DNA of 64,000 bases from assembly GCF_003173355.1 (NCBI RefSeq), contig NZ_QGMY01000006.1, positions 1 through 64,000 of the forward strand. Reading direction: 5' to 3'. The DNA is from Methanospirillum lacunae. Lineage in GTDB: Archaea > Halobacteriota > Methanomicrobia > Methanomicrobiales > Methanospirillaceae. The notes beneath the pieces are model-generated. The model had not been told where the DNA came from. It saw only the letters and a list, made by a program, of their open reading frames with translations, and searched no databases. Position numbers and translations under genes: made by a program. This document shows, one piece after another, positions 44,988 through 63,147 of this stretch; within the stretch, counting starts at the first letter, position 1, and each line of letters begins with the position of its first letter.

Positions 44988-44992
44988 CTTAT

Positions 44993-46587: not shown

Positions 46588-48210
46588 TTATTTCTTTTCT
46601 TCATTCCACTTTAAGGGATATAACGTATTTTCATATGATAATTGTAAAACTTTCTTAATATTCAATATTTTTTGGGTTTTTTCATTATAATTGTTAATAC
46701 TATCTGTGGAAATAAAAATTTGTTTCGTTTGATTATAATATAATTCTATAATTTTTTCAAATGAAGAAGTTTGAATATTTTTAAACAACATTGAATCATG
46801 AATTATTATGGATAAAGGTGTTAATGAAAATATTGCAAGATCTAAAATTATTATACCAGTATAAGCTTTACCAGTACCTGTGTCGCTTTCATTATTGAAG
46901 GAATATTTATTATCTTTTAAATCCAAACTTGGGGGAAATTGATGATTATCGTAAATCTGGTTGTTTATATTACCCATTTTAGTATTTAATTGGAGCATAA
47001 TATCCGATTGAATTTTTAATTTTATATCGGATAAGAGTATAATATTTTGGGATAAATCATCTTGAATTGAATTTTTATCAATATATATGTTAATAATCTC
47101 GAAATTTTTTATTTTCTGTTGTGATAAATCAATTAATTTTTCAATAGCTAACCTGGAAACATTATTCTCATTATATGTAATTAGATTATCAAATTCAGCA
47201 TTTTGTTGAAGAATTTCGTTATCTAAATTTTTAATTCGTTCATTTAATATTTTTTCTCTTTCTTTCAGTTGATCTTTAAGTATATTAGAAATGTTATTAT
47301 GAAAAGTATCTATCAATTTTAATTTATCTAAATTTATATCTGGAAAAAACTCAGCCAAATTAGATAATTTCCCCCTTATTTTTTTATCTTGAGTAGTTAA
47401 GTTTATTACAATCGAGTTTAATTCACTTTTTAAAATATTTCGTTTTATATGTAACTGACTTATCTTATTTTTAAGTGATAATAATTCATCAGATAATAAA
47501 ACATCAAGATTGGTCCTATTTTTTTCTAAATTATTTGTTATATCCAATATTTCTGTTTCAATTTTCTCATTTCGTTTTATTGCATCTTCATATATTTTTT
47601 TAGTAATACCATCAGGAATAATATCATATTTGGTTGCATCTTTAAATGTTTGTTTTTTCTTAGTTAAATAATCAATTTTTTTATCATGACTATTAATATT
47701 ATCATACATATTAAATAATTTTAATAGTCTTGTTATTGCTTTTTTATCCGGTTCTTTATCAATATTTATAGGTTTATTTAAATCGTATTTTTTCCCCCAA
47801 ATTCTTGAATATGGACCTATCACTTCTCTAAATGAAAGATATATTAAATGTTCCAATTCATATTTTTCTTTTAGAAATTCACGGAAATTTTGGATACTAA
47901 TTTCCTCTATTAAATTTTTATTTTTATCATAAATTTTTACAATATTGTGTTTGTCACTTTCACGAGAAAAATAATAATAGACATGTGAAAATTTGAATGT
48001 AAAATATACTATGTGATGACCCAAATGTTTAATGGCACCACCATTTTTTTTTAAAAAAGATTCACCACCAAACACAAAGTCAATGATCATTAAAAAAGTA
48101 GTTTTGCCAATGGAGTTAGTAGCTTTTTCATCACCTAATATTACATTCAACCCCTCATGAAATGTAATTAATTCATTCTTAAACAATTGACATCGAATTT
48201 CAACTAACAA
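46588..48210 (-). CDS. ABC-3C system ATPase (DUF2326, SMC-like)
   Basis: A 540-residue ATPase of the SMC/Rad50-like type. The N-terminal Walker A lies in DEKATNSIGKTTFLMIIDF near residue 28. A long coiled coil spans about 190-400 (repeating Glu/Lys/Asn/Leu). The signature-like ESDTGTGKAYTGIIILDLA is near 450 and IIIHDSMLF near 475, both characteristic of DUF2326 proteins. In ABC-three-component systems this ATPase is thought to sense invading DNA or a repair intermediate and release the effector. The start is a TTG at 48210 overlapping the upstream middle-component gene by 11 bases. Strongly AT-rich. Confidence 0.9.
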   Translation of the reverse strand: MLVEIRCQLFKNELITFHEGLNVILGDEKATNSIGKTTFLMIIDFVFGGESFLKKNGGAIKHLGHHIVYFTFKFSHVYYYFSRESDKHNIVKIYDKNKNLIEEISIQNFREFLKEKYELEHLIYLSFREVIGPYSRIWGKKYDLNKPINIDKEPDKKAITRLLKLFNMYDNINSHDKKIDYLTKKKQTFKDATKYDIIPDGITKKIYEDAIKRNEKIETEILDITNNLEKNRTNLDVLLSDELLSLKNKISQLHIKRNILKSELNSIVINLTTQDKKIRGKLSNLAEFFPDINLDKLKLIDTFHNNISNILKDQLKEREKILNERIKNLDNEILQQNAEFDNLITYNENNVSRLAIEKLIDLSQQKIKNFEIINIYIDKNSIQDDLSQNIILLSDIKLKIQSDIMLQLNTKMGNINNQIYDNHQFPPSLDLKDNKYSFNNESDTGTGKAYTGIIILDLAIFSLTPLSIIIHDSMLFKNIQTSSFEKIIELYYNQTKQIFISTDSINNYNEKTQKILNIKKVLQLSYENTLYPLKWNEEKK

Positions 48211-48424
48211 GTCTTATCACCCTACTTTTAGATAAAAATTCAATTTTATCTAAAATAAAAAGAATATCTAAACAAAATATAAACTCATTTATATTCGTAA
48301 ATTTAGATTCAGTTATATCGTATAAAACATTAATATTTAATTCTGCCTTATTTAATTCTTCAATAATATATGGCAATTTCCAAATAACACTCTCTTTCAC
48401 ACTAATGACCTTATTCGGAAACAT
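48200..48424 (-). CDS. ABC-3C system middle component (MC6-like)
   Basis: A 74-residue protein from the ATG giving MFPNKVISVKESVIWKLPYI; the longer GTG start at 48439 adds five residues. The order MxPNK, SVIxKLPYI, INVLYD, FTNINEFIFCLDILFILDKI, then RVIRLV fits the short middle component (type 6) that couples effector and ATPase in ABC-3C systems. It overlaps both neighbours (14 and 11 bases), so the three genes are translated as a unit. Confidence 0.8.
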   Translation of the reverse strand: MFPNKVISVKESVIWKLPYIIEELNKAELNINVLYDITESKFTNINEFIFCLDILFILDKIEFLSKSRVIRLVS

Positions 48425-49217
48425 ATTCAAAAACCTCACAATTTTGAATAAAAAATGATATTATTATTTTACAAGTATCAACGCTACCAGTATTATTTGA
48501 TTCCAGTTTTATCCAATCAGCCATTTGATTATAAATATCTTCTTGGTTTTTAGTTGAAGGAAGAAGTGAATAATAAAATAATTTAATTTGTTGAGAAATA
48601 ATTTTAAATTTACCAGGCGATAATTTGTCGATTTCTGAGAAAAGGTGTTTAATTAGTAAAAAATAACTTGTAATATTGAACTTAATTTGATTTTTTAGAA
48701 TAAAATTAAAATCAAAATCTAATTTTTGATCAATTTTTAATGCTGTATAATCCAATCCAATGTCACATTCATCCCAATTTTTTTCATTAAGTGAATTTAT
48801 GACATCAATTATTTCTTTTTCTAAAAAAGATTTCCCACATAATTTATGAAATCTATCTTTTATTATTAAATCTTGTTTTATTTTCTTCAATGATTCATAT
48901 TCTTCAATAGTTTTGGATTTATCATATTTTGTATGGCAATTACTACATAATAAAATAACATTATCTAAATCATTAGGATTAGTGCTCAGTTTTTCTACAT
49001 TCTGTAATATTTTTTTATCATTTTCAGATGGATGTAAAGGATAAATATGAGCGACTTCATAATTTTTTAATTTTCTTGACTTTTTTTCATTCATTAAACT
49101 AGTATGACAAATCGGACACATACCATCTACTTGAGAATATAGAATTATTTGGTTATTTTCAGAGTATTCTTTTCTCTCCTCCTTAATGTCTTCATTCTTA
49201 TCTAGATCAACTACCAT
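48411..49217 (-). CDS. ABC-3C system effector with HNH nuclease domain
   Basis: A 268-residue protein. Residues about 30-105 form an HNH endonuclease: CPICHTSLM (first Cys pair), YEVAHIYPLHPSEND (catalytic His), LDNVILLCSNCHTKYD (Asn, second Cys pair and His). The remaining ~160 residues are helical (KKIKQDLIIKDRF to the FEYVSE end) and correspond to the C-terminal docking domain of ABC-3C effectors. It should cut DNA when released by the ATPase/middle-component complex, giving a self-killing or DNA-degrading response. Upstream AT-rich DNA presumably holds the promoter. No toxin immunity gene is seen. Confidence 0.85.
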   Translation of the reverse strand: MVVDLDKNEDIKEERKEYSENNQIILYSQVDGMCPICHTSLMNEKKSRKLKNYEVAHIYPLHPSENDKKILQNVEKLSTNPNDLDNVILLCSNCHTKYDKSKTIEEYESLKKIKQDLIIKDRFHKLCGKSFLEKEIIDVINSLNEKNWDECDIGLDYTALKIDQKLDFDFNFILKNQIKFNITSYFLLIKHLFSEIDKLSPGKFKIISQQIKLFYYSLLPSTKNQEDIYNQMADWIKLESNNTGSVDTCKIIISFFIQNCEVFEYVSE

Positions 49218-49887: not shown

Positions 49888-49980
49888 ATGACCGAAAAAA
49901 ATCCGAAAGATACGATCAAAAAACCCACACCTGCCTATGATTATTCTGGTACCGGAACCTACGGTACAGCTGATCTATGA
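49888..49980 (+). CDS. Possible 30-residue leader peptide
   Basis: The frame MTEKNPKDTIKKPTPAYDYS plus GTGTYGTADL ends in a TGA that overlaps the next start as ATGA. Its last codons have a counterpart upstream of the intact copy at 52577 (YSYPGAYGTTDL ending), but there the frame is interrupted by an in-frame stop right after the ATG. Shared coding-like C-termini suggest that this was once a small gene coupled to the methyltransferase. Confidence 0.35.
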   Translation: MTEKNPKDTIKKPTPAYDYSGTGTYGTADL

Positions 49981-50558
49981 TCCTCTCTCCAGCATTCACC
50001 TCATCGTATACCCCCATCTGGTATCTCACTCTCATCCTATGGCTTCTCAGTGAACTCTACCTGATATACCGGGACCGGAACACCACAAAAAGCAGGACCG
50101 GGGATCCCGGAGATATATCGGGATTGCTGTCATCACCGGAATGGCACTCTCATGCTTCATAGGATTCAACCCGATCTTCTGGATCCAGATTGATCCTGAT
50201 ACCATCATGGGTATCAGCATCGCCATCATGTGGGCCGGAATCATCATCAGGTTCGTTGCAATCCGGACACTGGGCTGTCATTTCCGGACCATCATTCCAT
50301 CAGGAATGACCTACTATTGCAAAGACCGGAATATACCACTACATCAGACACCCGGCCTATCCCGGATCCATCATCAGTGCAACCGGCGTCACCCTGGCTT
50401 TTCAGAATATTCTCATTCCCATTATTGTTGTGGGAGTTCTTATACCCGCAGTTCTTCTCAGGATATCATATGAGGAAGCAGCCTTCTGTGATCATCTGGG
50501 ACCGGCTTATGAAGAATACATGAAAGAGACCTGGAGACTGATACCCTTCATCTACTGA
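49977..50558 (+). pseudogene. Isoprenylcysteine methyltransferase-like gene broken by three 1-bp deletions
   Basis: Same gene as 52577-53161, with about 90% identity by eye. The reading starts MILSPAFTSSYTPIWYLTLI, shifts after NTTK where one base is missing (50089 area), and shifts twice more near 50310-50325 where two single bases are lost compared with the intact copy. The three deletions sum to one codon, so the original frame and stop codon are restored and the length is exactly three bases shorter (582 against 585). The middle ~80 codons are nonsense. Confidence 0.85.
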
Positions 50559-50869
50559 GATATCGTAGTAAAAATCAGCATTTTTAAAAATAATCGATAA
50601 GAACCAGGATTAATTCTAAACGTGGAACTAAAAACGTTTCATAGGAGTAAACAACCGTTCTGGATTGCTCCAGAGCGTTTGCACTATACCATAGCCAGAG
50701 AACTCCGGATAGTTCATCCTGATTAATGGCATCATAACCTCCCAAGTCCCGGGAACCTGAACACCCCGGATCTTTTCTCAGCTTTTGATACTCCTCTCCC
50801 TGCCTTTCCCAGATTCACGGTTCTTGAGCCTGAAGAAATCCGACCACCCTGATAGGTCAGTAGCAGGGA
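50559..50869. other. Intergenic between methyltransferase pseudogene and DUF3795 leader
   Basis: Starts with a block (GATATCGTAGTAAAAATCAG) also found after the intact copy (AAAGATCGTAGTGCAAATCAG), confirming a segmental duplication that includes 3' flank. Otherwise nothing recognised. Confidence 0.5.
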
Positions 50870-51239
50870 ACCAATCCAGGAACTTTGTTTAAGAGCGGGA
50901 CAAAAACCCTATTCCTTCCCCGGAGCGGGAGGCCCCGCTCACCATTCCCGGACATATAACAGAAAATACTAAGATCTAATAAATTATTTTTATTATTACT
51001 AAGAGAGAGCGGGAAGATTAGAGTATAGAGCACGTATCCACCCACATGATCTCGTATCTCTGTATACCCGGATCTCCCGCTCTCCCGCCCGGAGATCAAA
51101 CAACCACAGACACATTGAGAGATCACACAACAAGCTAATAATAAAAAGCGGATTCTTCCCGCTCAAACCATACCTCTCCCGCTCTCAACGAACTGAAAGA
51201 TTCACTACCAAAGACCCCATACGATTACCATAACCAACC
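50870..51239 (+). ncRNA. Structured leader upstream of DUF3795 gene, copy B
   Basis: About 370 bases nearly identical to 62400-62751. It contains a short hairpin (GAGCGGG, loop, CCCGCTC near 50927), a likely promoter (AATAAATTATTTTTATTATT), then a ~230-base leader. GAGAGCGGGAAGAT (51005-51018) can pair with GATCTCCCGCTCTC (51071-51084). Downstream are further CCGCTC repeats and an AAGCGG, then CCGCT hairpin before the ATG at 51240. The multiple alternative partners for GAGAGCGGG suggest a switch-like leader. Confidence 0.55.
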
Positions 51240-51635
51240 ATGATCCAGCCGGACCTGATCGCTCCATGTGGTATGAACTGTGCATTATGTCTGGCCTATC
51301 AGCGTCCGAAAAATAAATGCCTGGGATGCAGGGATGACACCCCCAAAAAAGCTAAAACCCGTCAGACATGCATCATCAAAACCTGTGAAACCATCCAAAG
51401 CAGCTCATCTCATTTCTGCTATGACTGCCCTGATAAACCATGCAAGCGACTCAGACAACTGGACACCCGGTACCGGACAAAATACGCAATGTCCATGATA
51501 GACAACCTGAATGAGATCAAAGAAAAGGGCATGAACTCATTTTTAGAAAGTCAGACTGCAAAGTACACCTGCCCGACATGTGGCGGTCTCATCTGTGTAC
51601 ACCGTGGGCAATGCCTGACCTGTAAAAAGGAATGA
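51240..51635 (+). CDS. DUF3795 family protein, copy 1
   Basis: A 131-residue Cys-rich protein. LIAPCGMNCALCLAYQRPKN at the N-terminus is the DUF3795 signature, followed by KCLGCRDD, CIIKTCETIQ, HFCYDCPDKPCKRLRQLDTR and a C-terminal zinc ribbon CPTCGGLICVHRGQCLTCKK. At least twelve Cys suggest Fe-S or zinc sites. The family is common in methanogens with no firm function. A second copy at 62752 is about 85% identical, and a third dead copy is at 59723. The stop is followed by A-rich DNA without clear terminator. Confidence 0.85.
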   Translation: MIQPDLIAPCGMNCALCLAYQRPKNKCLGCRDDTPKKAKTRQTCIIKTCETIQSSSSHFCYDCPDKPCKRLRQLDTRYRTKYAMSMIDNLNEIKEKGMNSFLESQTAKYTCPTCGGLICVHRGQCLTCKKE

Positions 51636-51945
51636 GATCGTATCTCACTAACCGTACCGGACCCTTGGCGGTTCCTTTCTTCCTGCCATCAAGGATCTCC
51701 TGATAACCCTCTCTCTATCAAAGGAGTCCTGATCTCTTCGGACATGATCCTGTACCCAGGGTTCTTAGACTTTAGTAACTGCCAGATATGAGACACTACA
51801 TAAAGACGCAAAAAGATTATCAGAAGTAATGGCTACAACTTTTAGTTTTAGAGAGACTGATTCTGGAAAGGAATTCTTTTATCCCCATATACAGATCATC
51901 TACTCATTGGTCCTTAATAATCTCATGAGAACTGAAGGGATATTT
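51636..51945. other. Intergenic between DUF3795 and SRPBCC genes
   Basis: About 310 bases with no recognised feature. The first part is non-coding; a possible upstream start of the SRPBCC gene lies at 51829. Confidence 0.4.
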
Positions 51946-52401
51946 GTGAAAGAAATCAGAACTGAAATAGTGATAAAGGCCAGCCCGGTTAAAATATGGA
52001 AGATCCTAACAAACTTTGAAAGGTATCCTACATGGAATCCATTCATTATTTCGATTCAGGGAACCCTTGCTGCCGGGAATATCATCCAGGTAGAACTGGC
52101 CCCACCTGATGCAAAACGGATGAAAATGAAACCCAGAGTCCTCAGGGTTATTCCAAATCAGGAATTTCGTTGGTTGGGACGAATACTAATTCCCGGAATA
52201 TTTGATGGAGAACACATCTTTGAATTACGGGACAATAAAAACGAAACCACAACCGTTATTCAAAGAGAGATATTTACCGGAATCCTTGTTCCATTTCTCA
52301 AAAAATTGTTAGATGATAATACCAGACGGGGGTTCGAATCAATGAATAGTGAATTGAAAAAGATTTGTGAAGCAAATAGTGAGGGAATTCCTGGAAACTA
52401 G
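51946..52401 (+). CDS. SRPBCC-superfamily protein
   Basis: About 151 residues from the GTG in ATTTGTGAAAGAAATC, preceded by AGGGA. This start places EIRTEIVIKASPVKIWKILT first, which is the typical SRPBCC opening (strand, helix with VWxxLTN). FERYPTWNPFIISIQG and FRWLGRILIPGIFDGEHIFE are the next recognisable blocks, and a C-terminal helix RGFESMNSELKKICE closes the fold. Such proteins bind lipids or small hydrophobic ligands. Longer starts at 51829 or 51925 are possible. Situated between two duplicated units. Confidence 0.75.
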   Translation: MKEIRTEIVIKASPVKIWKILTNFERYPTWNPFIISIQGTLAAGNIIQVELAPPDAKRMKMKPRVLRVIPNQEFRWLGRILIPGIFDGEHIFELRDNKNETTTVIQREIFTGILVPFLKKLLDDNTRRGFESMNSELKKICEANSEGIPGN

Positions 52402-52576
52402 AAATTTCCAACGATTATACTTATTTTTCAGGTTTATGTTCAAATTGCCTTTTTCAAAATCTCATATTTCGAAGATAATCTCATTCTATGTAGTACAGAT
52501 CCGAAGGACAGGACCATACAGCAAATACCGGCCCCCATAATTATTCTTATCCCGGAGCCTACGGTACAACAGATTT

Positions 52577-53161
52577 ATGATCATCTCTCCAGCATTCACC
52601 TCGTCATATACCCCCATCTGGTATCTCACCCTCATCCTGTGGATACTCAGCGAACTCTACCTCATATACCGGGACCGGAACACCACAAAGCAGCAGGACC
52701 GGGGAACCCGGAGATATATCGGGATTGCTGTCATCACCGGAATGGCACTCTCATGTTTCGTAGGATTCAACCCGGTCTTTCGGATCCAGATCGATCCTGA
52801 TACCATCATGGGTATCAGCATCGCTATCATGTGGGCCGGAATCATCATCCGATTCCTGGCAATCCTGACACTGGGCCGTCATTTCCGGACCATCATTCAC
52901 ATCAGGGATGACCATACCATTGTAAAGACCGGAATATACCACTACATCAGACACCCGGCCTATCTCGGATCCATCATCAGTGCAGCCGGCGTCACCATGA
53001 TATTTCAGAATATTCTCATTCCCGTCATTGTTGTGGGAGTACTCATACCCGCAGTTCTTCTCAGGATATCATATGAGGAAGCAGCCCTCTGTGATCATCT
53101 GGGATCGGATTATGAAGAATACATGAAAGAAACCTGGAGATTAATACCCTTAATCTATTGA
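52577..53161 (+). CDS. Isoprenylcysteine carboxyl methyltransferase-like membrane protein
   Basis: A 194-residue protein with about four to five hydrophobic helices (WYLTLILWILSELYLIY, IGIAVITGMALSCFVGF, IGISIAIMWAGIIIRFLAI). GIYHYIRHPAYLGSIISAAG near residue 120 is the SAM-binding RHPxYxG box, and ISYEEAALCDHLGSDYEEY near 165 is the conserved EE pair with YxxY ending. It is intact; the neighbouring copy at 49977 is broken. The flanking 3' sequence is shared with that copy. The 52500-52576 region has the remnant of a small upstream frame. Confidence 0.85.
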   Translation: MIISPAFTSSYTPIWYLTLILWILSELYLIYRDRNTTKQQDRGTRRYIGIAVITGMALSCFVGFNPVFRIQIDPDTIMGISIAIMWAGIIIRFLAILTLGRHFRTIIHIRDDHTIVKTGIYHYIRHPAYLGSIISAAGVTMIFQNILIPVIVVGVLIPAVLLRISYEEAALCDHLGSDYEEYMKETWRLIPLIY

Positions 53162-53249
53162 AAGATCGTAGTGCAAATCAGCATGTTTTGAAATAATCGA
53201 ATTCAACAGAGAATAATTTAATCGTAGAATCGAAGTTTGGTTGAACTCT

Positions 53250-55424
53250 TCAGATTACAGGAATGTCATCGATCCAATTATCAGAATAATACTTATATGC
53301 AGTCGATTTTACTAATAAATCATAGGGTAAATAATGATCATATTTCTCTCTACCCATAATTTCTCCTTTTTTAACAATATCGTATATATCCGGAGTATTA
53401 TCTATAAGGCTAGAATAAGCTTCAATAATTTCATTAGGGGTTTTATTTTTTATTTTAAATGCGATATGATTTCTATCCATAATATCTAAATTCAAAAAAT
53501 ATTTCCCCAAAGTGTATAATGTATTATGTTGGGAAGAGCCAGTCCATGTAAACCAGTAAGTATAATCTGAGTTAGTAACAAAATTACTAGTATACAGGCC
53601 AGCTTCCTTAGCAGATAATCGGGCAGTTGATAGAATCATCTTGCCAGTTTCTGTTAAATATGATGGATTTTTTGATGACAGTAATATTTCTTTCATTTTT
53701 TGTCGAATTCGTTTATGTATATCCGGAATAATGGGAGTTATGAAAAGTGGGTCTTTTTTTCCAGATGAGTGTTCTACCCACATCTTCTTTTGATTTAAAT
53801 CAACTTCCTTAATTCTCCATCGAATACCTGCTAAAAGAATAAATTCATCAGATTTGTAATTTGGTGAAAAACCCACACTCCCAATAGGGTGCCCTTCATT
53901 TATAACATCTATCTCGACAGAACTTGAAAAGGCAGAATAGAAATCGAAATTCTTTACTATTTTTTCTCCTAATAATCCTAATATTAAATAATTATCATCA
54001 GTTTGGTCGATGAGGTCATGTTTACCCATTTCCTTCAATAATGCAACAAACTCCTTTTGGTCAATATTTTTAAAGGACCCATTCACGAGAAGGATTTTAT
54101 GAATGTTCTCGGCAGTTATTCCTCCTTTTTCAGTAATAACACTCATTATCTGTTGAATAAGCGTTGAATAATGAGGGGCACTTATCTTTGGCGGCTCACA
54201 CCATTTTTCGAATAGAAGTTCTGATGTTGCAAGTCCATGAAGAAAAAAAGGATAGATTTGATCAACTATATCAGGTTTTTCTGATATCTGTTCGCTTAAA
54301 TATATAACCATTTGATGAGATTTTCCCTCACCTCTTCCACTTCGTCCAAGTCTTTGTACAAGAGAATTAACACTCCAACAAGGGCCGACCTGTCCAACAC
54401 GAGAAATATTTCCTACATCAATGCCCATCTCAAGAGTACTTGAACAAAAAACTGTAATCCAGGGTTTCTCCTTTAAATTTTTTTCCGTACTTTCTCTAAA
54501 TTCTTTTGAAAGAGAACCATGATGAATTTCAAAAAGATTTGGTAGATTTTTTCTCTCTAAATATCGAATTGATTCATCAGTTATACTCTCTAAATGAGAT
54601 TTAGTATTAATGAAAACTAACCCATTGCGCCCATAAAAATCGTTGATAATATCTGGAACAACTGGGTTGACATTTATTTCATCATTCATTTCTTGATAAA
54701 CAGGATCACCCTGTTCATCTAGAAGATATGAACGTACTAGGAAATCAATTCCTTTTTCCTCCGATTCATTTTGAATTATCTCAATTGTTTTTTCATTCCC
54801 TGGCAACATCCAAGTTTTTGCAAGGTTAAAATCTCCTATTGTTGCAGATAATCCAATAATCCGGATTTTATTTTTATTTAATTGTGAAATTCTAGAGATA
54901 AGACTTTTTAAATGAGCACCTCTTTCTGTACCAATAAAAGAATGCATTTCATCGATTACTATGAACTTAACTTCGTTAAAAATACTTTGAACCTCATTAG
55001 AATGACGAATAAACAGAGCTTCAATGGATTCAGGAGTTATTAGAAGGATACCGGATGGATTTTTTATAAATTTTCTCTTTTTACTTTGATCTACGTCACC
55101 ATGCCATCTAAAAACTGGAATATCTGAAAGATTACATAGATGCTCTACTCTCTCAAATTGATCATTAATAAGTGCCTTCAATGGACCAATGTAAATTGCA
55201 CTGAGAGAATTTGAACCGGAATCGATAATTTGAGACAAAATGGGTAGGAATGCAGCTTCCGTTTTTCCAGAGGCTGTACTAGCCGAAATAATGAGATTGT
55301 TTGAGGTATTGTATAACGAATTGATGGAATCTCTTTGGATCGGCTTTAAAGTTTTCCATTGCATATCATATAATTTTTTTTGGATTAAAGGATTTAATAA
55401 TTGAAATGAAGTATTTATTACCAT
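53250..55424 (-). CDS. DEAD/DEAH helicase, Lhr/BrxHI-like
   Basis: A 724-residue superfamily 2 helicase. Motif Q region LKPIQRDSINSL near residue 26, Walker A SASTASGKTEAAFLP near 48, Ia IGPLKALINDQFE near 78, DEMH box FIVIDEMHSF near 153, SAT motif IGLSATIGDF near 188, motif IV/V FCSSTLEMGIDVGN near 330 and VI QRLGRSGRGEG near 357. The C-terminal ~330 residues contain Lhr-type winged-helix material. The Lhr-like layout matches the helicase (BrxHI) that accompanies BrxD in BREX-type loci. It is the last gene of a three-gene operon, starting one base after the BrxD-like stop. Confidence 0.85.
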   Translation of the reverse strand: MVINTSFQLLNPLIQKKLYDMQWKTLKPIQRDSINSLYNTSNNLIISASTASGKTEAAFLPILSQIIDSGSNSLSAIYIGPLKALINDQFERVEHLCNLSDIPVFRWHGDVDQSKKRKFIKNPSGILLITPESIEALFIRHSNEVQSIFNEVKFIVIDEMHSFIGTERGAHLKSLISRISQLNKNKIRIIGLSATIGDFNLAKTWMLPGNEKTIEIIQNESEEKGIDFLVRSYLLDEQGDPVYQEMNDEINVNPVVPDIINDFYGRNGLVFINTKSHLESITDESIRYLERKNLPNLFEIHHGSLSKEFRESTEKNLKEKPWITVFCSSTLEMGIDVGNISRVGQVGPCWSVNSLVQRLGRSGRGEGKSHQMVIYLSEQISEKPDIVDQIYPFFLHGLATSELLFEKWCEPPKISAPHYSTLIQQIMSVITEKGGITAENIHKILLVNGSFKNIDQKEFVALLKEMGKHDLIDQTDDNYLILGLLGEKIVKNFDFYSAFSSSVEIDVINEGHPIGSVGFSPNYKSDEFILLAGIRWRIKEVDLNQKKMWVEHSSGKKDPLFITPIIPDIHKRIRQKMKEILLSSKNPSYLTETGKMILSTARLSAKEAGLYTSNFVTNSDYTYWFTWTGSSQHNTLYTLGKYFLNLDIMDRNHIAFKIKNKTPNEIIEAYSSLIDNTPDIYDIVKKGEIMGREKYDHYLPYDLLVKSTAYKYYSDNWIDDIPVI

Positions 55425-55425
55425 A

Positions 55426-56763
55426 TTATGTCTGTTTATTTAAACTAAAATGTTTTAATTCATTATCTGAAGGTTTTTCTAATTCTTCTTCAGAAATATC
55501 TTCTAGATCAGGATCCTTTGATACCTGTAAATCAGATAATTTGATAAGTTTATTTAATTCTACTTCTGGATTCTGCTCTAATATAGATAATATTTTTACA
55601 TATCCAATTATAATATCACGTGGTGTTAAGAAAAATTCAGAACCCAATTGTTCTGAACAATATTTCTGATATTGGGCTATTCCATCATCAGAAATGAGAT
55701 ACTTTGTATTATCACCCAATGCATACACATGACGAATTTTCCGAAGTAATTCTAAATTTTCGTCAAATGTAAACTTTTGCAGTTCGATAACCGGACCAGA
55801 AAAATCTTTTAACCCTTCATCAATAAATTTACTCTTTTTTAAACGGGATTCAAATGCTCCATAACTTATTAAACCTCGTTTGGTGTCATAAATAAATTTA
55901 TCAAATCCTGCAAAAAAGAAACCAATTCCTTCTGAAACCCCTTGTTCACTTTCGTTATATATTTGGAGAATTATTTCGTAATTGGAATTTCGAGCTATTG
56001 AATTATTTAATCGATGAGAAAGAACCCCCATTTCATCCAAGCAAATTATTAGACCTTTATATCCAGCCATTTGAACAAATTTAGCCCACAACTTAAGGTA
56101 ATCATAAATATTCTGATCTGAAATAATATTTTTTACACCTAAATCATCTTTTGCATCTGTTTTGTTTGAATATTCACCTGATAACCAACGGATTGCTGAT
56201 GCCATAAGAATATCATCTTCTTTATAAAATCCTTCATAATATCTGCTTATAGCAATAGTAAAATCGAATCCATTGACATATGCTTGTAACGGTGTCAATT
56301 CTTGACGAATATGACGAATAATTTCATCCTGACTCTTTCCTAATTGCTTATCATTGAAATCGATATCGGAAATCCATCTTTCGACAATACTTGCTAATGC
56401 ACCCCCATTTGGTTTTGTTTTTATGGCCATATTTTGCATTAAGGTCGCATATAACATTCTCGCTTGACTATTTGATCCATGAAGGCGTTTATCGATTGTA
56501 ATATCAGTTTGAAGAACAACGAGATCTTTTTCTAAAGCTAACATCCGACATAAATTAAGAAAAAAACTTTTTCCTGAACCATATGGTCCAATAATAAAGC
56601 GAGCCGCAGATCCATTTTTGCTTATATTATCAATATCTTTTAAAATAGCAAGAATTTCTTCTTTTCTTCCAACCTGTATATGTTGAAGTCCAATTCGTGG
56701 AGATACTCCAGCTTGTAAAGCTTTAATAATTGCATTACGTTCATTTTGCCTGATTGTTACCAT
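55426..56763 (-). CDS. BrxD-like ATPase (DUF2791 family)
   Basis: A 445-residue P-loop ATPase. RNAIIKALQAGVSPRIGLQH leads to VGRKEEILAILKDID and Walker A FIIGPYGSGKSFFLNLCRML near residue 60; GLIICLDEMGVLSH near 250 is the Walker B region. The GVSPRIGLxxIxVGR start is diagnostic for the BrxD/DUF2791 group. GGAG six bases before ATG 56763 supports that start over the TTG at 56775. BrxD acts with a helicase in BREX-type defence, but its mechanism is unclear. It lies between a TerB protein and a helicase in one operon. Confidence 0.85.
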   Translation of the reverse strand: MVTIRQNERNAIIKALQAGVSPRIGLQHIQVGRKEEILAILKDIDNISKNGSAARFIIGPYGSGKSFFLNLCRMLALEKDLVVLQTDITIDKRLHGSNSQARMLYATLMQNMAIKTKPNGGALASIVERWISDIDFNDKQLGKSQDEIIRHIRQELTPLQAYVNGFDFTIAISRYYEGFYKEDDILMASAIRWLSGEYSNKTDAKDDLGVKNIISDQNIYDYLKLWAKFVQMAGYKGLIICLDEMGVLSHRLNNSIARNSNYEIILQIYNESEQGVSEGIGFFFAGFDKFIYDTKRGLISYGAFESRLKKSKFIDEGLKDFSGPVIELQKFTFDENLELLRKIRHVYALGDNTKYLISDDGIAQYQKYCSEQLGSEFFLTPRDIIIGYVKILSILEQNPEVELNKLIKLSDLQVSKDPDLEDISEEELEKPSDNELKHFSLNKQT

Positions 56764-56776
56764 ATTTGTCTCCAAA

Positions 56777-59275
56777 TTATACTTTATCTACAATAATTTT
56801 TGAAAGTAATTCTGGATTTGCAAAAATTCCATTATCATCTTCAATGACAACATAATCATCATAATGAGTAATAGACCACATATTTAGCGCATCTATCACA
56901 TGGTTTATTCCAAATAAATTATTTTCTTTTACAAATGCATGAAAACTTTTATTTGACCATTTCAAATTATTTAATAGGGCTTCCAATACTGGATAATATT
57001 GTTTTTCCAGTGAACATATTACAGAATAGTCGATATAATGTTGTAGCAATTCATATTTCATCAAATCGGTTTTATTTATTAGATTTAACTTTCTTTCAAC
57101 AGGTTTTTTATCTTGGTTATTATTAAAAACACCATCGAGAATTACTACAATTTCATCATCTTTATCAATTATTACATTATTTTCTTCGGAATTTATAATG
57201 GGCACCGAATAATTAGATTGAATTAACTCACCCTTATCCAATGAAACGGAGGTTTTTATCGATATTAGTGAAGAACTTTCATCTTGGATATTCAATTTAA
57301 TCAAACGATTTTGAATTAAAATTTCTACTTCAGACTTAGGAATATCCATAGATTCTAAAACTTGACTTAAAGAGGCAATTTCTAAGTCATGAATAACATT
57401 ATCTGCAATAATAATATCTACAATATAGGATGCAATAATTTCTCTTTTATGAAAAGGAACCTTATCTTTCACTCGTTTTAAGATAAAATTTATATTAGGA
57501 GGATGAGATATCAAAATTTTTTGATACAATCTAATACATTCAAGATCATGAGAATTTAATATAAATTTGTTTGTCACATAATCAGAAAGATAATTTAATT
57601 CTTCAGAAGTAATTTTTTTGTCTGCATGAGCTATATGCATACCGAGTTCTATAAAAAAAACTGCCGTATTATATTGAATTGAATGTGATTCAGAATTAGG
57701 AGTGCTTAATACTAATCCTACATAATCTGCCGATTCTAATGCCCCATAATTACTTGGTACTACCTCATATCCTTGAGATTTTATAAATGAAATAATACTT
57801 GAGATCTTTTCACTATCAATGGTAATATGCTCAATTGGAGTCTTTAATTTATTAAATTCACTGATTGAAATAATAATGTCTTCATCTTCATTATTTATAA
57901 AAGGTAAAATAATTGATTCCCAAACATCAACTAATTGAAATTTTTTATTACTTGAAGAGTCTTTTTTATTTAGGATAATTTCATTATTTTTTTCTAAAGA
58001 ATTATTTAATTCATCAATTGATTTCAAATTTATACTTTGTATCCATAATTCTCGTAAAGGATTGAATTGAGACTTTTTACCGATTGGGTTTTGAAGAATA
58101 ATCTCATCAATAGAGCCATTATGTTGAAATTGATCTCGAATTGTTGGATTTGCAGCGTAATATTTAAACCTATAAGGAAATCGGGATACTTGAAGAGTAA
58201 ATCCTGAAGGATAATAATGTTTGAATAATTTTAAGAATAAATCCCTTTTTTCACGTATTGTCTTTTTATCAAAATTTTTTGGGACATTTAAAAAGTAATA
58301 TAGTATTAAATACGACAATAACCCAGAAATTGGTTTCTGATGTTGAATGTACCAAGAAAGAATTACTTTAAGTTCATCGGGACCTATCTCATCATTTGGT
58401 GGATAAAAATTAGATAACTCTTTATTTGATAGATTAAGAATACGTTTACCTAAAAGATATGCAATAAAACTTGAAATAAAAGAAAAATTAGAGCTAGGAG
58501 AAGAGACAATTTTCTTTAAATTATAACACTCATTTAAAATAGGCCCATAATCTTCATTGTCTAAAAATATACGCCGCTCTAAACCAAAAAAGTACAAAAA
58601 GAGGTACCCATCATCTTCCAATTTTTTCTTTCTACCCTCATGTAACCAAGATAGGTAGAGATATCTTTGATCTGGATCTAGATTTGAGTAATTCGGGAAT
58701 GATGGTAGTCTTTTTATTGTATTACTATATGATCCAATTGGAAGAGTGACATCAATACACGATGGTTCGATAGAATCAGATTTGCCTTGTGACCAATATA
58801 CTAAAGGATTCGAAAACGAAAATTTCTGAATGTATACGCCGTTTTTTCTTCTTCCTCCCCAATTGATTGGTACACTGATAAATTTTGGTTTTTCTCTATT
58901 AGTTTTTTCTTGAATAGTTCGGAAAATATTTTGAGTAATTTCATTATTAGGGTCAAGATCAAGACCCTTTTTTATATTAATTAAGGCTTCAGAATTTTTG
59001 TTAGCTTTCAACAAAAATAGGGACCTAAAAACATATAATGTTGACAAGTTAGGATTAATTTCAATTGCTTTTGAAATGCTCAAAATTGCATCGTCGATAT
59101 TTCCTTGCTTTTCAAGACTTATGCTAAGCCCTTGATATGCTAAATAATCCTTAGAATTATTATAAATGAGGTGATTGAAATGTTCAATTGCTTTTTGAAA
59201 ATTGCTTGAATGAATAAGTGCATATCCATGACTGTGTGAATCTGATATTGATGAAGACGATAATTCAGAGTTCAT
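56777..59275 (-). CDS. TPR-TerB_N-TerB-TerB_C protein
   Basis: An 832-residue multidomain protein. Residues about 10-130 are TPR repeats (ALIHSSNFQKAIEHFNHLIY, YLAYQGLSISLEKQGNIDDA, TLYVFRSLFLLKANKNSEAL). About 165-430 is TerB_N: VTLPIGSYSNTIKRLPSFPN, LDPDQRYLYLSWLHEGRKKK, YLFLYFFGLERRIFLDNEDY. About 560-690 has TerB-like helices with IAHADKKITSEELNYLSDYV and IIIADNVIHDLEIASL, each with the D/E metal-binding pattern. About 740-832 is TerB_C. The fusion of TPR to TerB_N is distinctive. It is the first gene of the operon with BrxD and helicase genes; the ATG lies after an AT-rich promoter region. Confidence 0.85.
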   Translation of the reverse strand: MNSELSSSSISDSHSHGYALIHSSNFQKAIEHFNHLIYNNSKDYLAYQGLSISLEKQGNIDDAILSISKAIEINPNLSTLYVFRSLFLLKANKNSEALINIKKGLDLDPNNEITQNIFRTIQEKTNREKPKFISVPINWGGRRKNGVYIQKFSFSNPLVYWSQGKSDSIEPSCIDVTLPIGSYSNTIKRLPSFPNYSNLDPDQRYLYLSWLHEGRKKKLEDDGYLFLYFFGLERRIFLDNEDYGPILNECYNLKKIVSSPSSNFSFISSFIAYLLGKRILNLSNKELSNFYPPNDEIGPDELKVILSWYIQHQKPISGLLSYLILYYFLNVPKNFDKKTIREKRDLFLKLFKHYYPSGFTLQVSRFPYRFKYYAANPTIRDQFQHNGSIDEIILQNPIGKKSQFNPLRELWIQSINLKSIDELNNSLEKNNEIILNKKDSSSNKKFQLVDVWESIILPFINNEDEDIIISISEFNKLKTPIEHITIDSEKISSIISFIKSQGYEVVPSNYGALESADYVGLVLSTPNSESHSIQYNTAVFFIELGMHIAHADKKITSEELNYLSDYVTNKFILNSHDLECIRLYQKILISHPPNINFILKRVKDKVPFHKREIIASYIVDIIIADNVIHDLEIASLSQVLESMDIPKSEVEILIQNRLIKLNIQDESSSLISIKTSVSLDKGELIQSNYSVPIINSEENNVIIDKDDEIVVILDGVFNNNQDKKPVERKLNLINKTDLMKYELLQHYIDYSVICSLEKQYYPVLEALLNNLKWSNKSFHAFVKENNLFGINHVIDALNMWSITHYDDYVVIEDDNGIFANPELLSKIIVDKV

Positions 59276-59539
59276 ATAATCTTTCGATCCTTTCTAACTG
59301 AACACGATAAATTTATCCTTAAAGTAAATAAACAAAATCCATACTAAATATCGACTAAACTTCTTAAAATGTAATTTTAATAATCTTTCAGGAGAATAAT
59401 AGTAATAAAGATTTTAGAGGTTACAAATAAAGTATCTTACCCATAGAAATCTATATATACAAGATTTTTAACTTTATATTCATTATAAAAAAGGCTTATG
59501 GCATCTCTTTTTGTTTTTGAAGATACGAGCGTGAAAAAA
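59276..59539. other. AT-rich upstream region of TerB operon
   Basis: Should contain the promoter of the TerB/BrxD/helicase operon; TATA-like ATCTATATATAC near 59448 is oriented either way. Nothing else recognised. Confidence 0.4.
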
Positions 59540-59722
59540 ACTACAACCCCCCCCCAGAATGGGAACCCCTGCTCGCTTTTCCCGGACGTATCTTCCTCCA
59601 AACGTAGATCTAACTAAGAATACTAATAATTATAATAATAATGCAGGATAATAGAATCATAAAGTAAACACCTGCCCCCATGATTACACATCTCTGCATA
59701 TCTGGATCTCCCACTCACAACC
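59540..59722 (+). repeat. Decayed copy of the DUF3795 leader
   Basis: TGCTCGCTTTTCCCGGACGT and AGATCTAACTAAGAATACTAA, then ACATCTCTGCATATCTGGAT with TCTCCCACTC correspond in order to the leaders at 50.9 and 62.4 kb, with many mutations and deletions. Confidence 0.6.
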
Positions 59723-59960
59723 TTGATCCAACCAGACCTGATCGCCCCATGTGGCATAAACTCTTCATTTGGCCTGGCCTATCAACGCCCTAATAATAAA
59801 TATGTGTGATACAGAGACGAAACACGGATAAAAACAAAAACCCGGCAATCATGCATCATCAAAAACTGTGAGACCATCAAGAATAGCCACAAAAATGATT
59901 CATACCTGCCCCATTTTGATAAATTGCGACTTCATACAATTCTCCTTATTTCCAATCTTT
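59723..59960 (+). pseudogene. Decayed DUF3795 gene, copy 3
   Basis: The reading LIQPDLIAPCGINSSFGLAY matches the intact copies. The ATG has become TTG at 59723, a TGA interrupts the frame at 59817, and later codons read TRQSCIIKNCETIKNSH before homology is lost. Several Cys are gone. It lies beside its own decayed leader and shows that leader and gene were duplicated together. Confidence 0.8.
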
Positions 59961-59983
59961 TTAGATCATCGATTCAAACCTGA

Positions 59984-60690
59984 TTATCTAATGGAAGAGT
60001 AAAAAAATAAAGAATTATTACCTATTTTAGAGGTTCTTGAATCAAACATGCCAATATTGGTCATAGTGACGTGCAAAAAATCTTTTGAGTTCAACAATCC
60101 ATCATTATATAAATCTCGTGTAATTTGTTCGTATAATTCTCTTTTATATATTAAATCAGGAAAAGTATATTCCAACACAACTGCAGGTCCACCCATCGTC
60201 CATGAAGGATAATTTATATTTCTTTTTTCGCTATATTTCGAGGATTTTAAAAAAAAGTTGAGCAATTTTAAATGTTATGAAGTATATCTACCGACAAGAT
60301 TCAGGAAACTTGTTGGATATTATCCTCGAATGAAACATTAATAGTAGAATTAATAACTACATTTCATAATGCTTCGAGTTTTTCCTATTGGTGTGTTCTC
60401 ATCGTAATATTTGTACCAAACAACAAGACACTGATGAATTGTTCATTATCCTTCAGATTATCAATTTAAAATTCATCAATTACTGTTTGTAATCTCAATA
60501 ACTATTAATATATTGTTGTCATCCATTCATCCCTTCTTTTTTCTAATGGAGGAGCAATAACCATAGAAAAAAATTCTGAAATCGGACCTCCTATTACTGG
60601 AACGAATGATAAACCCGCTTTCACACCTGCATGAGCATAATCTCCGTAACTAGGCGCTAAATCTTCACGGATATCTTTCTTTTCACTCAT
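59984..60690 (-). pseudogene. Broken gene of unknown family (GVKAGLSFVPVIGG type)
   Basis: Starts MSEKKDIREDLAPSYGDYAH, then AGVKAGLSFVPVIGGPISEF with APPLEKRRDEWM; a TAA follows at about 60505. The reading resumes in the same direction as LQTVIDEFKIDNLKDNEQFI and TVNVSFEDN-like sequence interrupted by TAG and TGA, and after further shifts ends with YPSWTMGGPAVVLEYTFPDL, then NDGLLNSKDFLHVTMTNIGM and SRTSKIGN. These parts look like start, middle and end of one ~240-residue protein. The start overlaps the upstream nuclease gene by 8 bases, indicating former coupling in the same operon. Confidence 0.65.
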
Positions 60691-61795
60691 CCCGGATAAC
60701 CCCTTCAACAAATTCCCGGATCTCCTCTGTCCCCGGAAGTCTCACCTGGTACTTGGAAACAAACACCTGATTATCCATACCGGCACAGGCATATTGAACG
60801 AGGGCATGATTCTTTTCTGTACACAGAAGTAATCCGACCGGAGGATTATCCCCTTCAGTCATCACATGTGCCTTATACCAATTCAGATACGTATTCAGTT
60901 GCCCAAGTGCTTCATGAGAAAACCCACCCACTTTCAGCTCAATCAGGACATGGCATTTCAAAACCCGATGATAAAAAACAAGGTCTACAAAGAAGTACTC
61001 CTCTCCAATCAGAATCCGTTTCTGCCGTGCCTCAAAACAGAAACCATATCCAAGTTCTAGGAGAAACGACTCGATCTTAAAAAGTAACGCATGTTCAAGA
61101 TCCGACTCATACAGCACTTCCTGACTCTTGATCCCTAAAAACTCAAACACATATGGATCCCGGATCATCAGTTGAGGAGAATCCACCTGTGCTAGAGATC
61201 GAACATGATCAGATAGTGCCTTTTTATCCCGAGATAATGCTGAACGTTCAAAAAGAAGGCTCTCGATCTGACGTTTCAATTCTCTGACTGACCAGTTCCC
61301 CCTGACACATTCTACCTCATAGAACATTCTCTTCAGAGGATCTTCAAGAGTGATAAGCAGGGAAAAATGACTAAATGAAACAGATCTGATAAAAGTTTCA
61401 TAAAATGAGTGGAATTGATCCAGGTCCTCATCTATGAGATCTCCATGATGGGCATAACTGTCATACAATTGGGCAGACGGTGTCTGCCTAATTACATTGC
61501 TGGGACATTGGGCAAACATTGTCTGCCCAAACTGAGGGTAAATTGTATAAGACTGGCGGTATAGTTTGAGTGATCGATAAGAAAATCCATCATTATGAGG
61601 AAGATGATGAGAAAGATCCTGGAGAATATGATCTCCATATGATGCTCGATCTGATCCTTTCTGCTCAAACTCCTTAATGTAATATCCAATGAGCCAGTTT
61701 CTAACTGTGAGGGAGAAGTTCACCGCCTTGGTAGCCTGGCCGGTGAGCTCCTCATGAATTGCAGATATGGCCTGGATCAGGTCGTTAAAATTCAT
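60683..61795 (-). CDS. DUF1016/YhcG PDDEXK nuclease-family protein
   Basis: A 370-residue protein. The N-terminal domain reads VNFSLTVRNWLIGYYIKEFE, then DHILQDLSHHL and SYRSLKLYRQSYTIYPQF; the central DUF1016 segment has RGNWSVRELKRQIESLLFER. The C-terminal nuclease domain has DPYVFEFLGIK, ESDLEHALLFKIESFLLELG (Glu), YFFVDLVFYHRVLKCHVLIE (Asp and ExK-like) and LKVGGFSHEALGQLNTYLNW. The PDDEXK pattern with DxxFYH-(x)-LxxxVLIELK is preserved, so nuclease activity is likely. The family often sits within type I restriction loci; here its 4-base overlap with an HsdM relic confirms that. Confidence 0.9.
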   Translation of the reverse strand: MNFNDLIQAISAIHEELTGQATKAVNFSLTVRNWLIGYYIKEFEQKGSDRASYGDHILQDLSHHLPHNDGFSYRSLKLYRQSYTIYPQFGQTMFAQCPSNVIRQTPSAQLYDSYAHHGDLIDEDLDQFHSFYETFIRSVSFSHFSLLITLEDPLKRMFYEVECVRGNWSVRELKRQIESLLFERSALSRDKKALSDHVRSLAQVDSPQLMIRDPYVFEFLGIKSQEVLYESDLEHALLFKIESFLLELGYGFCFEARQKRILIGEEYFFVDLVFYHRVLKCHVLIELKVGGFSHEALGQLNTYLNWYKAHVMTEGDNPPVGLLLCTEKNHALVQYACAGMDNQVFVSKYQVRLPGTEEIREFVEGVIRDE

Positions 61796-62217
61796 ACCTT
61801 ATATCCTAAACTAACACAGTTTTTTCTGATATCTGTATCCAATTGTCTCCCTTCTTTGATTCGGTCATGTACCTGTTTGGTGAAACGGGCTATCTTATCA
61901 AAGAACAACTCACCACCACCCCCACCCTCTTCAGTTCCAAAATATCGGCCAGGAATCAGCACATGCCCATGTTTTGTGATTTCATCAAGGGTTACAGAAG
62001 CATAGAAAAATGTCAGATATGTAAACTGATGTGATTTTTCTGGATTATGGTCAAGTTTAGTACTCATCACTTCATGAAGAACTCCAAAGGCGTCAGACAG
62101 ATACTTAGGAAAAATGAACCCCGGAATAACATGCATATATTTAGCTGTTTTCCAAAGTATCGCTTTAATTCCCAGGTTGGTATTGGTTAATGGGCAAGTT
62201 TTTTTCTGACAGGCCAT
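61792..62217 (-). pseudogene. Internally deleted HsdM (type I restriction methylase) relic
   Basis: The frame of 141 codons joins the N-terminus of HsdM (TNLGIKAILWKTAKYMHVIP, GFIFPKYLSDAF) directly to its C-terminus (SVTLDEITKHGHVLIPGRYF, GTEEGGGGGELFFDKIARFT, then RQLDTDIRKNCVSLGYKV). A full HsdM has about 500 residues, so the SAM-binding and NPPF catalytic core has been lost. A short deletion also occurs in the KYMHVIPG segment. The reading frame has nevertheless stayed open. It overlaps the DUF1016 gene by four bases. Confidence 0.85.
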
Positions 62218-62399
62218 ATTGGTGGAATAGAGGATTTCTTTTAAAGTTCGATATATGTTTTCAAATAGTGATGTGTTCAGTTATTCAAATCGTTTGCAAT
62301 ATTTTTTGATAAGAATTGATAACGCCAGTTGAAAATCATTACAGTTCGTAATATTTCGAAGAAACCCGATAAATAAAAATTAAATTCCATCTTTTATCT
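62218..62399. other. Intergenic, upstream of HsdM relic
   Basis: AT-rich; presumably holds the promoter of the residual restriction operon. Nothing coding seen. Confidence 0.35.
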
Positions 62400-62751
62400 C
62401 CGTAAGCGGGACAAATCATTCAATCCTTCCCCGGAGCGGGAGGCCCCGCTCTCTTTTCCCGGCCATATAACCGATAATACTAAGATCTAATAAATTATTT
62501 TTATTATTACTAAGAGAGAGCGGGAAGATCAGAGTATAAAGCACGTATCCACCCACATGATCTCATATCTCTGTATACCCGGATCTCCCGCTCTCCCGCC
62601 CGGAGATCAAACAACTCACATTTCAGGAAAAGATCTCTGAACGAACTAATAATAAAAAGCGGATTCTTCCCGCTCAAACCATTCTTCTCCCGCTCTCAAC
62701 GAGCTGAAAGATTCACTAACCAGAGATCCCATACAATTACCATAACCAACC
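62400..62751 (+). ncRNA. Structured leader upstream of DUF3795 gene, copy A
   Basis: Nearly identical to 50870-51239. GAGCGGG-AGGC-CCCGCTC (62434-62451) is a perfect 7-bp hairpin ahead of the presumed promoter (AATAAATTATTTTTATTATT). Downstream, GAGAGCGGGAAGATC (62516-62530) pairs with GGATCTCCCGCTCTC (62581-62595), and later CCCGCTC repeats offer alternative partners. An AGCGG-loop-CCGCT hairpin follows. The leader is ~230 bases from promoter to ATG, long for an archaeal gene. Confidence 0.55.
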
Positions 62752-63147
62752 ATGATCCAGCCTGACCTGATCGCTCCATGTGGCATGAACTGTGCATTAT
62801 GCCTGGCCTATCAACGACCTAAAAACAAGTGTAAAGGATGCAGGGATGAAACCCCGAAGAGTGCGAAGTCCTGCGAACAATGTATCATCAAAAACTGTGA
62901 AACCATCCAGAATAGCCCATCTCATTTCTGCTATGACTGCCCGGATATGCCATGCAAGCGACTCAAACAACTGGACACCCGGTACCGGACAAAATACGCA
63001 ATGTCCATGATAGACAACCTGAATGAGATCAAAGAAAAGGGCATCAACTCATTTGTGGCAAGTCAGACAGCGAAGTACACCTGCCCGACATGTGGCGGCC
63101 TTATCTGTGTACACCGTGGGCATTGCCTGACCTGTAAAAAGGAATAA
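62752..63147 (+). CDS. DUF3795 family protein, copy 2
   Basis: A 131-residue Cys-rich protein, about 85% identical to the one at 51240. LIAPCGMNCALCLAYQRPKN, KCKGCRDE, CIIKNCETIQ, HFCYDCPDMPCKRLKQLDTR and the terminal CPTCGGLICVHRGHCLTCKK are all present, so the predicted metal sites are conserved. Differences are concentrated between residues 25 and 45. Both copies appear intact, so either each is used under a different condition or the duplication is recent. Confidence 0.85.
   Translation: MIQPDLIAPCGMNCALCLAYQRPKNKCKGCRDETPKSAKSCEQCIIKNCETIQNSPSHFCYDCPDMPCKRLKQLDTRYRTKYAMSMIDNLNEIKEKGINSFVASQTAKYTCPTCGGLICVHRGHCLTCKKE

What the first reader, a model, noticed from the sequence alone, without database searches (positions are those of the whole stretch)
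53250..59275. TPR-TerB / BrxD-like ATPase / Lhr-like helicase operon without other BREX genes
Three genes read in one direction with 1-13 base spacings: a large TPR-TerB_N-TerB-TerB_C protein, a DUF2791 (BrxD) ATPase and a BrxHI/Lhr-like helicase. In known BREX loci BrxD and BrxHI go with PglX, PglZ and others, none of which are present here, and no methylase accompanies the trio. The AT-rich composition and the location beside HsdM and DUF1016 relics fit a defence island. The combination looks like a self-contained helicase/ATPase/stress-sensor defence module, which would be worth testing as a distinct system.
Basis: partly seen in the sequence, partly recalled or inferred. Interest (0 to 1): 0.8.

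Follow-up and report, generated by a model that had tools for sequence, protein, structure and literature searches.

The report
Shango antiviral operon in an archaeon
The three genes are a complete copy of Shango, a virus-defence system already described in bacteria and reported in archaea, here in a methane-producing archaeon; its one unusual feature is that the sensor-like protein carries a protein-binding repeat where most relatives have a membrane anchor.

Summary
In detail: three co-directional genes on the minus strand (59275-53250), a TPR-TerB_N-TerB-TerB_C protein, a BrxD-like AAA+ ATPase and an Lhr/BrxHI-like helicase, tightly spaced and without BREX partners. The reading as a distinct, undescribed system does not hold. 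PADLOC models name all three as Shango: SngA (1.5e-28), SngB (2.3e-144), SngC (2.5e-218), far ahead of BrxD and BrxHI. The same gene order occurs in dozens of bacterial and archaeal genomes, and 436 of 5426 E. coli genomes hold a relative. Shango protects Pseudomonas aeruginosa against phages (PMC10250203). The operon looks intact. It sits in a variable defence locus: a same-genus genome with homologous flanks carries other genes there. New here is the SngA N-terminus: a TPR, found in none of 35 other SngA proteins, 26 of which have a predicted membrane helix instead. Likely mechanism, inferred: SngB, an Orc/Cdc6-like ATPase, loads the helicase SngC on invading DNA under control of SngA. In passing: unlinked BrxD-like and BrxHI-like genes co-occur perfectly (62 of 99 genomes) in this archaeal class. 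Verdict: new member of a known kind.

The parts
56777..59275 (-). sngA: 832 aa, N-terminal TPR + TerB_N + TerB + TerB_C
   Evidence: PADLOC SngA PDLC03958 1.5e-28, residues 133-827; Pfam TerB_N, TerB, TerB_C all above gathering cut-off
58901..59275 (-). N-terminal TPR region of SngA (about residues 1-125), not part of the Shango SngA model
   Evidence: Pfam TPR_2 2.6e-9; PDB consensus-TPR matches over residues 11-124; present in 1 of 36 SngA; AlphaFold confidence low here
58550..58825 (-). TerB_N domain of SngA (residues 151-242)
   Evidence: Pfam PF13208 2.2e-17
57323..57649 (-). TerB domain of SngA (residues 543-651)
   Evidence: Pfam PF05099 3.5e-6; best solved-structure match of the model is 2h5n (PG1108), prob 1.00 but E 1.6e-2
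56795..57139 (-). TerB_C domain of SngA (residues 713-827)
   Evidence: Pfam PF15615 1e-6
55426..56775 (-). sngB: BrxD-like AAA+ ATPase (likely true start ATG 56763)
   Evidence: PADLOC SngB PDLC03959 2.3e-144 against BrxD 1.1e-42; PF10923 1.6e-129; SD-like GGAG before the ATG
56563..56589 (-). Walker A of SngB (GPYGSGKSF, residues 63-71)
   Evidence: G63, G66, G68, K69, F71 invariant in 45 SngB
56032..56037 (-). Walker B acidic pair of SngB (D247 E248)
   Evidence: invariant in 45 SngB
53250..55424 (-). sngC: Lhr/BrxHI-like SF2 (Ski2-like) helicase, 724 aa
   Evidence: PADLOC SngC PDLC03960 2.5e-218 against BrxHI 3.2e-119; DEAD and Helicase_C
55254..55277 (-). helicase motif I of SngC (TASGKTEA, residues 50-57)
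   Evidence: T50 A51 G53 K54 T55 E56 A57 conserved in at least 95% of 51 SngC
54942..54953 (-). helicase motif II of SngC (DEMH, residues 158-161)
   Evidence: D158, E159, H161 at least 95% conserved
54333..54356 (-). helicase motif VI of SngC (QRLGRSGR, residues 357-364)
   Evidence: Q357 R358 G360 R361 G363 R364 at least 95% conserved
53200..59517 (.). segment with no homology in the syntenic locus of the same-genus genome G032: the Shango cassette
   Evidence: homology to G032 ends at 53199 and resumes at 59518

Best explanation
This is a complete, apparently functional Shango anti-virus operon (sngA-sngB-sngC) in a methanogenic archaeon of the order that holds Methanoregula (genus probably Methanospirillum), placed in a variable defence locus. 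Shown: family identity of all three proteins, gene order, intact ATPase and helicase motifs, and a SngA whose N-terminus is a TPR. Inferred: SngB, an AAA+ ATPase of the Orc/Cdc6 type, assembles on DNA or on a replication intermediate and loads or activates SngC, a Ski2/Lhr-like helicase that unwinds or displaces the virus replication machinery; SngA, built from TerB domains, senses infection or holds the pair inactive. In most relatives SngA has a predicted membrane helix; here the TPR would tether it to a partner protein instead. No nuclease domain was detected, so the effect is most likely a block of virus DNA replication or recruitment of host nucleases. I put about 0.97 on the identity and about 0.45 on this mechanism.
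For: PADLOC: SngA 1.5e-28, SngB 2.3e-144, SngC 2.5e-218, each the best model. Conserved A-B-C order in genome-contig loci from many bacterial phyla, haloarchaea (L073, L093) and Methanoregula (L046), and 436 of 5426 E. coli genomes with a place covering at least 80% of an Enterobacter Shango operon. Pairwise distances of A, B and C are strongly correlated over 51 loci (Mantel r 0.93-0.95, 0 of 999 permutations), so the three travel as a unit. Catalytic motifs kept. SngB model (pLDDT 92) matches Orc2, Cdc6/Orc1, TnsC, RFC and the RADAR ring RdrA in the PDB, weakly (TM 0.35-0.42). PMC12839542 reads BrxD as an Orc-Cdc6 ATPase that may load the Ski2-like BrxHI, a tightly linked dyad. PMC10250203 shows phage protection by PA14 Shango, same gene order. 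Own observation in support of the ATPase-helicase partnership: core, unlinked BrxD-like and BrxHI-like genes co-occur in 62 of 62 genomes and are both missing from the other 37.
Against: No biochemical mechanism for Shango was found in the papers searched, so the loader and sensor roles are analogy. SngA here is the most divergent part: 98.8 bits to the SngA model against 158-344 for five other SngA, and it departs from several positions conserved in 90% of relatives, so a changed function is possible. Core BrxD/BrxHI co-occurrence rests on few evolutionary events.
Confidence: 0.88

Rival explanations
1. A distinct, undescribed defence system that shares parts with BREX.
For: No BREX partner genes; SngA has a TPR not seen in other SngA and a weaker SngA score.
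Against: All three proteins have Shango models as best match and the order is the Shango order; nearest relatives of all three proteins are the same loci (L035-L039, L048).
Confidence: 0.03
2. A remnant of a type 2 BREX (Pgl) locus that kept only BrxD and BrxHI plus a TerB gene.
For: SngB and SngC are homologous to BrxD and BrxHI (1.1e-42 and 3.2e-119).
Against: SngB and SngC models score 335 and 328 bits above BrxD and BrxHI; no PglZ in the genome; A, B and C co-evolve as a unit across 51 loci.
Confidence: 0.02
3. A housekeeping DNA-repair or replication module rather than defence.
For: The genome has separate, class-wide BrxD-like and BrxHI-like genes that look housekeeping.
Against: Those are different paralogues (BrxD and BrxHI are their best models). 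True SngC-level hits (over 700 bits) occur in only 12 of 135 class genomes, the locus is swapped for other defence genes in the same-genus genome G032, the composition is unlike the surroundings, and the bacterial counterpart protects against phages.
Confidence: 0.05
4. A decaying Shango copy that no longer works, with SngA drifting.
For: SngA lost some near-invariant residues (for example S192 for Y, S508 for D, D706 for T); neighbouring genes include fragments.
Against: Three full-length open frames, all catalytic motifs of SngB and SngC kept, tight spacing with plausible start signals.
Confidence: 0.1

Closest known systems
Shango (SngABC), P. aeruginosa PA14 and E. coli (PMC10250203, citing Millman et al. 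2022)
   Same: Same three families in the same order, all three best-matched by the Shango models; widely spread, in defence hotspots.
   Different: Archaeal host; SngA has an N-terminal TPR and no predicted membrane helix; SngA is divergent (about 23-25% identity to its closest relatives).
Type 2 BREX (Pgl) BrxD-BrxHI dyad
   Same: Homologous ATPase and helicase encoded side by side.
   Different: No PglX, PglZ, PglW or BrxC; an SngA in their place; much lower match scores.
Core BrxD-like and BrxHI-like genes of the same archaeal class
   Same: Homologous ATPase and helicase, and a TPR protein beside the ATPase gene.
   Different: Unlinked, present in nearly all genomes of three families, no TerB protein, best matched by BrxD and BrxHI models.
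Hachiman (HamAB)
   Same: A Ski2-like SF2 helicase as a DNA-sensing part of a defence complex (PMC12278908).
   Different: Hachiman has a nuclease effector HamA and no Orc-like ATPase or TerB protein; HamB matches SngC only at 5e-18.

Membership tests
Shango | SngA: TerB-domain protein matching the SngA model | tested here: met
   PDLC03958 1.5e-28, residues 133-827; TerB_N, TerB, TerB_C above Pfam cut-offs
Shango | SngB: ATPase matching the SngB model better than BrxD | tested here: met
   479.8 against 144.7 bits
Shango | SngC: DEAD/DEAH helicase matching the SngC model better than BrxHI | tested here: met
   725.3 against 397.2 bits
Shango | Three adjacent genes in the order TerB protein, ATPase, helicase | tested here: met
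   PA14 order from PMC10250203
Shango | Protection against viruses | not testable with these tools
   shown for PA14 Shango only
BREX (any type) | PglZ phosphatase/nuclease gene | tested here: not met
   no PF08665 match in the whole genome
BREX type 2 | BrxD at the NCBIfam equivalog cut-off | tested here: not met
   NF033438 142.9 bits against cut-off 350
BREX (any type) | BREX methyltransferase PglX | not tested
   no search of the whole genome with a PglX model; none evident in the window ORFs or the 19 kb read beyond the operon

The most novel reading that the evidence does not exclude
A Shango subtype in which SngA is not membrane-anchored but is recruited by its TPR to a cytoplasmic partner, so that the module senses a different cue from the bacterial, mostly membrane-tethered form; SngA N-termini (membrane helix, TM2, peptidoglycan-binding domain, TPR) would then be exchangeable localisation or sensing modules.
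Probability: 0.3. Interest if true: 0.45.

Novelty: new member of a known kind. Interest (0 to 1): 0.22.

Why it matters
It removes a candidate new system from the list and adds a methanogen Shango with three intact genes. The comparison shows that the SngA core (TerB_N-TerB-TerB_C) is fixed while its N-terminus is exchanged, mostly a membrane helix, sometimes a TM2 or peptidoglycan-binding domain, here a TPR. That gives a simple test of what SngA does. The class-wide unlinked BrxD-like and BrxHI-like pair, seen in passing, may show what this ATPase-helicase partnership does outside defence.

Tried and rejected
A single-sequence SngB scan of genome contigs found no relatives; an alignment query did. 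PDB sequence search with SngB found nothing useful, with SngA only TPR proteins. Structure search with the SngA model found only a weak TerB-like match (2h5n, E 1.6e-2). The idea that the TPR came from the TPR protein beside the core BrxD-like gene was considered; the nearest TPRs in the genome are generic (26-32% identity), so no source is claimed. No paper on the Shango mechanism was found in the papers searched. BREX remnant rejected.

Full report
What is there. Three minus-strand genes, 59275-56777, 56775-55426 and 55424-53250, run in one direction with 1-base gaps (13 bases if the second gene starts at its ATG at 56763, which has GGAG just upstream). Pfam gives TPR, TerB_N, TerB and TerB_C for the first, BrxC_BrxD for the second, DEAD and Helicase_C for the third. 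The segment is AT-rich, 28-33% GC against 40-45% on either side.

What it is. PADLOC's best model is SngA for the first protein (1.5e-28), SngB for the second (2.3e-144; BrxD 1.1e-42) and SngC for the third (2.5e-218; BrxHI 3.2e-119). These are the three parts of Shango, described as TerB-like protein, ATPase and DEAD/DEAH helicase in that order in P. aeruginosa PA14, where the cloned operon reduced plating of several phages 10- to 100-fold (PMC10250203). The system has also been listed for archaea, including Asgard archaea (PMC11291487). The NCBIfam BrxD model is far below its cut-off (142.9 against 350 bits), and PglZ is absent from the whole genome, so it is neither BREX nor a visible remnant of it.

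Spread. An SngB alignment found 80 loci in genome contigs, most with SngA- and SngC-like genes on either side of sngB in the same order, in Proteobacteria, Cyanobacteria, Verrucomicrobia, Acidobacteria, haloarchaea (L073, L093) and Methanoregula (L046). An Enterobacter copy has a match over at least 80% of its length in 436 of 5426 E. coli genomes. In the window's own class, 12 of 135 genomes have a SngC-level helicase above 700 bits. Over 51 loci the pairwise distances of SngA, SngB and SngC correlate at r 0.93-0.95, with no permutation of 999 reaching this. The closest relatives of all three window proteins are methanogen loci L035-L039.

Host. G069:C7 (25084 bases) equals the Methanoregula sp. 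fen_34 record NZ_PMZU01000063.1 in length and sequence coordinates, so the host is in that family as grouped by GTDB. The genus is probably Methanospirillum: a same-genus genome, G024, has the size I recall for M. hungatei JF-1 (3,544,738 bases). This last step rests on memory.

State of the genes. SngB keeps its Walker A (G63, G66, G68, K69) and Walker B pair (D247, E248), invariant in 45 proteins. SngC keeps motifs I, II, III and VI at positions conserved in at least 95% of 51 proteins. SngA is the divergent part: 98.8 bits to its model, against 158-344 for five other SngA, with some near-invariant residues changed.

What differs. The SngA model and all phylum hits start near residue 133-139 of this SngA. 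Residues 1-125 form a TPR. In an alignment of 36 SngA, TerB_C is found in 36, TerB_N in 35 and TerB in 33; TPR in this one only; peptidoglycan-binding domain in 3, TM2 in 2. Upstream of the conserved W139, 26 of 36 have a hydrophobic stretch typical of a membrane helix (19-residue Kyte-Doolittle mean of at least 1.6), and this one does not (0.93). The closest Methanoregula copies L037 and L038 lack both, so the N-terminus varies even among near relatives. The sample leans to relatives found through SngB, so a TPR-SngA elsewhere may have been missed.

Surroundings. The same-genus genome G032 has homologous flanks: window 52534-53199 matches 236164-235500, and 59518-59883 and 62421-69513 match 233027-222000. 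Between them it has a permease, an AAA_21 ATPase with a DUF4276 protein (PADLOC HEC-01A, HEC-01B) and an apparent HsdR fragment instead of Shango. Repeated copies of a DUF3795 gene and an ICMT-family gene lie around the island. The site therefore behaves as an exchangeable defence locus, and the cassette is about 53200-59517.

How it may work. The SngB model (mean pLDDT 92) resembles Orc2, Cdc6/Orc1, clamp loaders, TnsC and the RADAR protein RdrA, at low TM-scores of 0.35-0.42. PMC12839542 reads the homologous BrxD as an Orc-Cdc6 ATPase and proposes that it loads the Ski2-like helicase BrxHI. I carry this over: SngB loads SngC, SngA controls or places them. No nuclease domain was found in any of the three. 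These roles are inferred. A side observation fits the partnership: unlinked BrxD-like and short BrxHI-like genes are both present in 62 of 99 class genomes and both absent in the other 37, including G024, whose relatives in the genus have them. Because the presence follows family lines, this is few independent events.

Verdict.

Noticed in passing
own genome G000:C11:24335-25582 and G000:C7:341998-344013 (L040, L155): A BrxD-like ATPase (next to a TPR protein, near hisD, pyrG and guaA) and a roughly 700-aa BrxHI-like helicase, far apart, occur together in 62 of 99 genomes of the class and are both missing in the other 37; no PglZ in the own genome. Looks like a housekeeping ATPase-helicase pair misnamed BREX.
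   Followed up: partly
window 46588-49217: HNH-CTD11 protein and DUF2326 ATPase with a 79-aa ORF between them: looks like an ABC-three-component defence system (PADLOC PDC-M68A/B, weak), in 22-26% GC DNA.
   Followed up: partly
window 60683-61795: DUF1016/YhcG nuclease-family gene (PDC-S02), apparently full length rather than a relic.
   Followed up: partly
window 49934-53214 and 59718-63018: Repeated copies of an ICMT-family gene (49934-50611, 52534-53214) and a DUF3795 gene with its upstream region (50894-51506, 59718-59887 partial, 62405-63018) around the defence island.
   Followed up: partly
L146 (G032:C1:222000-241500): Same locus in a same-genus genome carries an AAA_21 ATPase and DUF4276 pair (HEC-01A/B) and an apparent HsdR fragment in place of Shango.
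   Followed up: yes
L066, L068, L086 and similar SngA proteins of Alphaproteobacteria: Some SngA carry an N-terminal signal or membrane stretch and peptidoglycan-binding sequence (PG_binding_1 in 3 of 36), which suggests envelope anchoring. The three members were not identified one by one.
   Followed up: no
window 43680-46079: Broken pieces of transposase-like genes beside the defence genes; no family was assigned.
   Followed up: no
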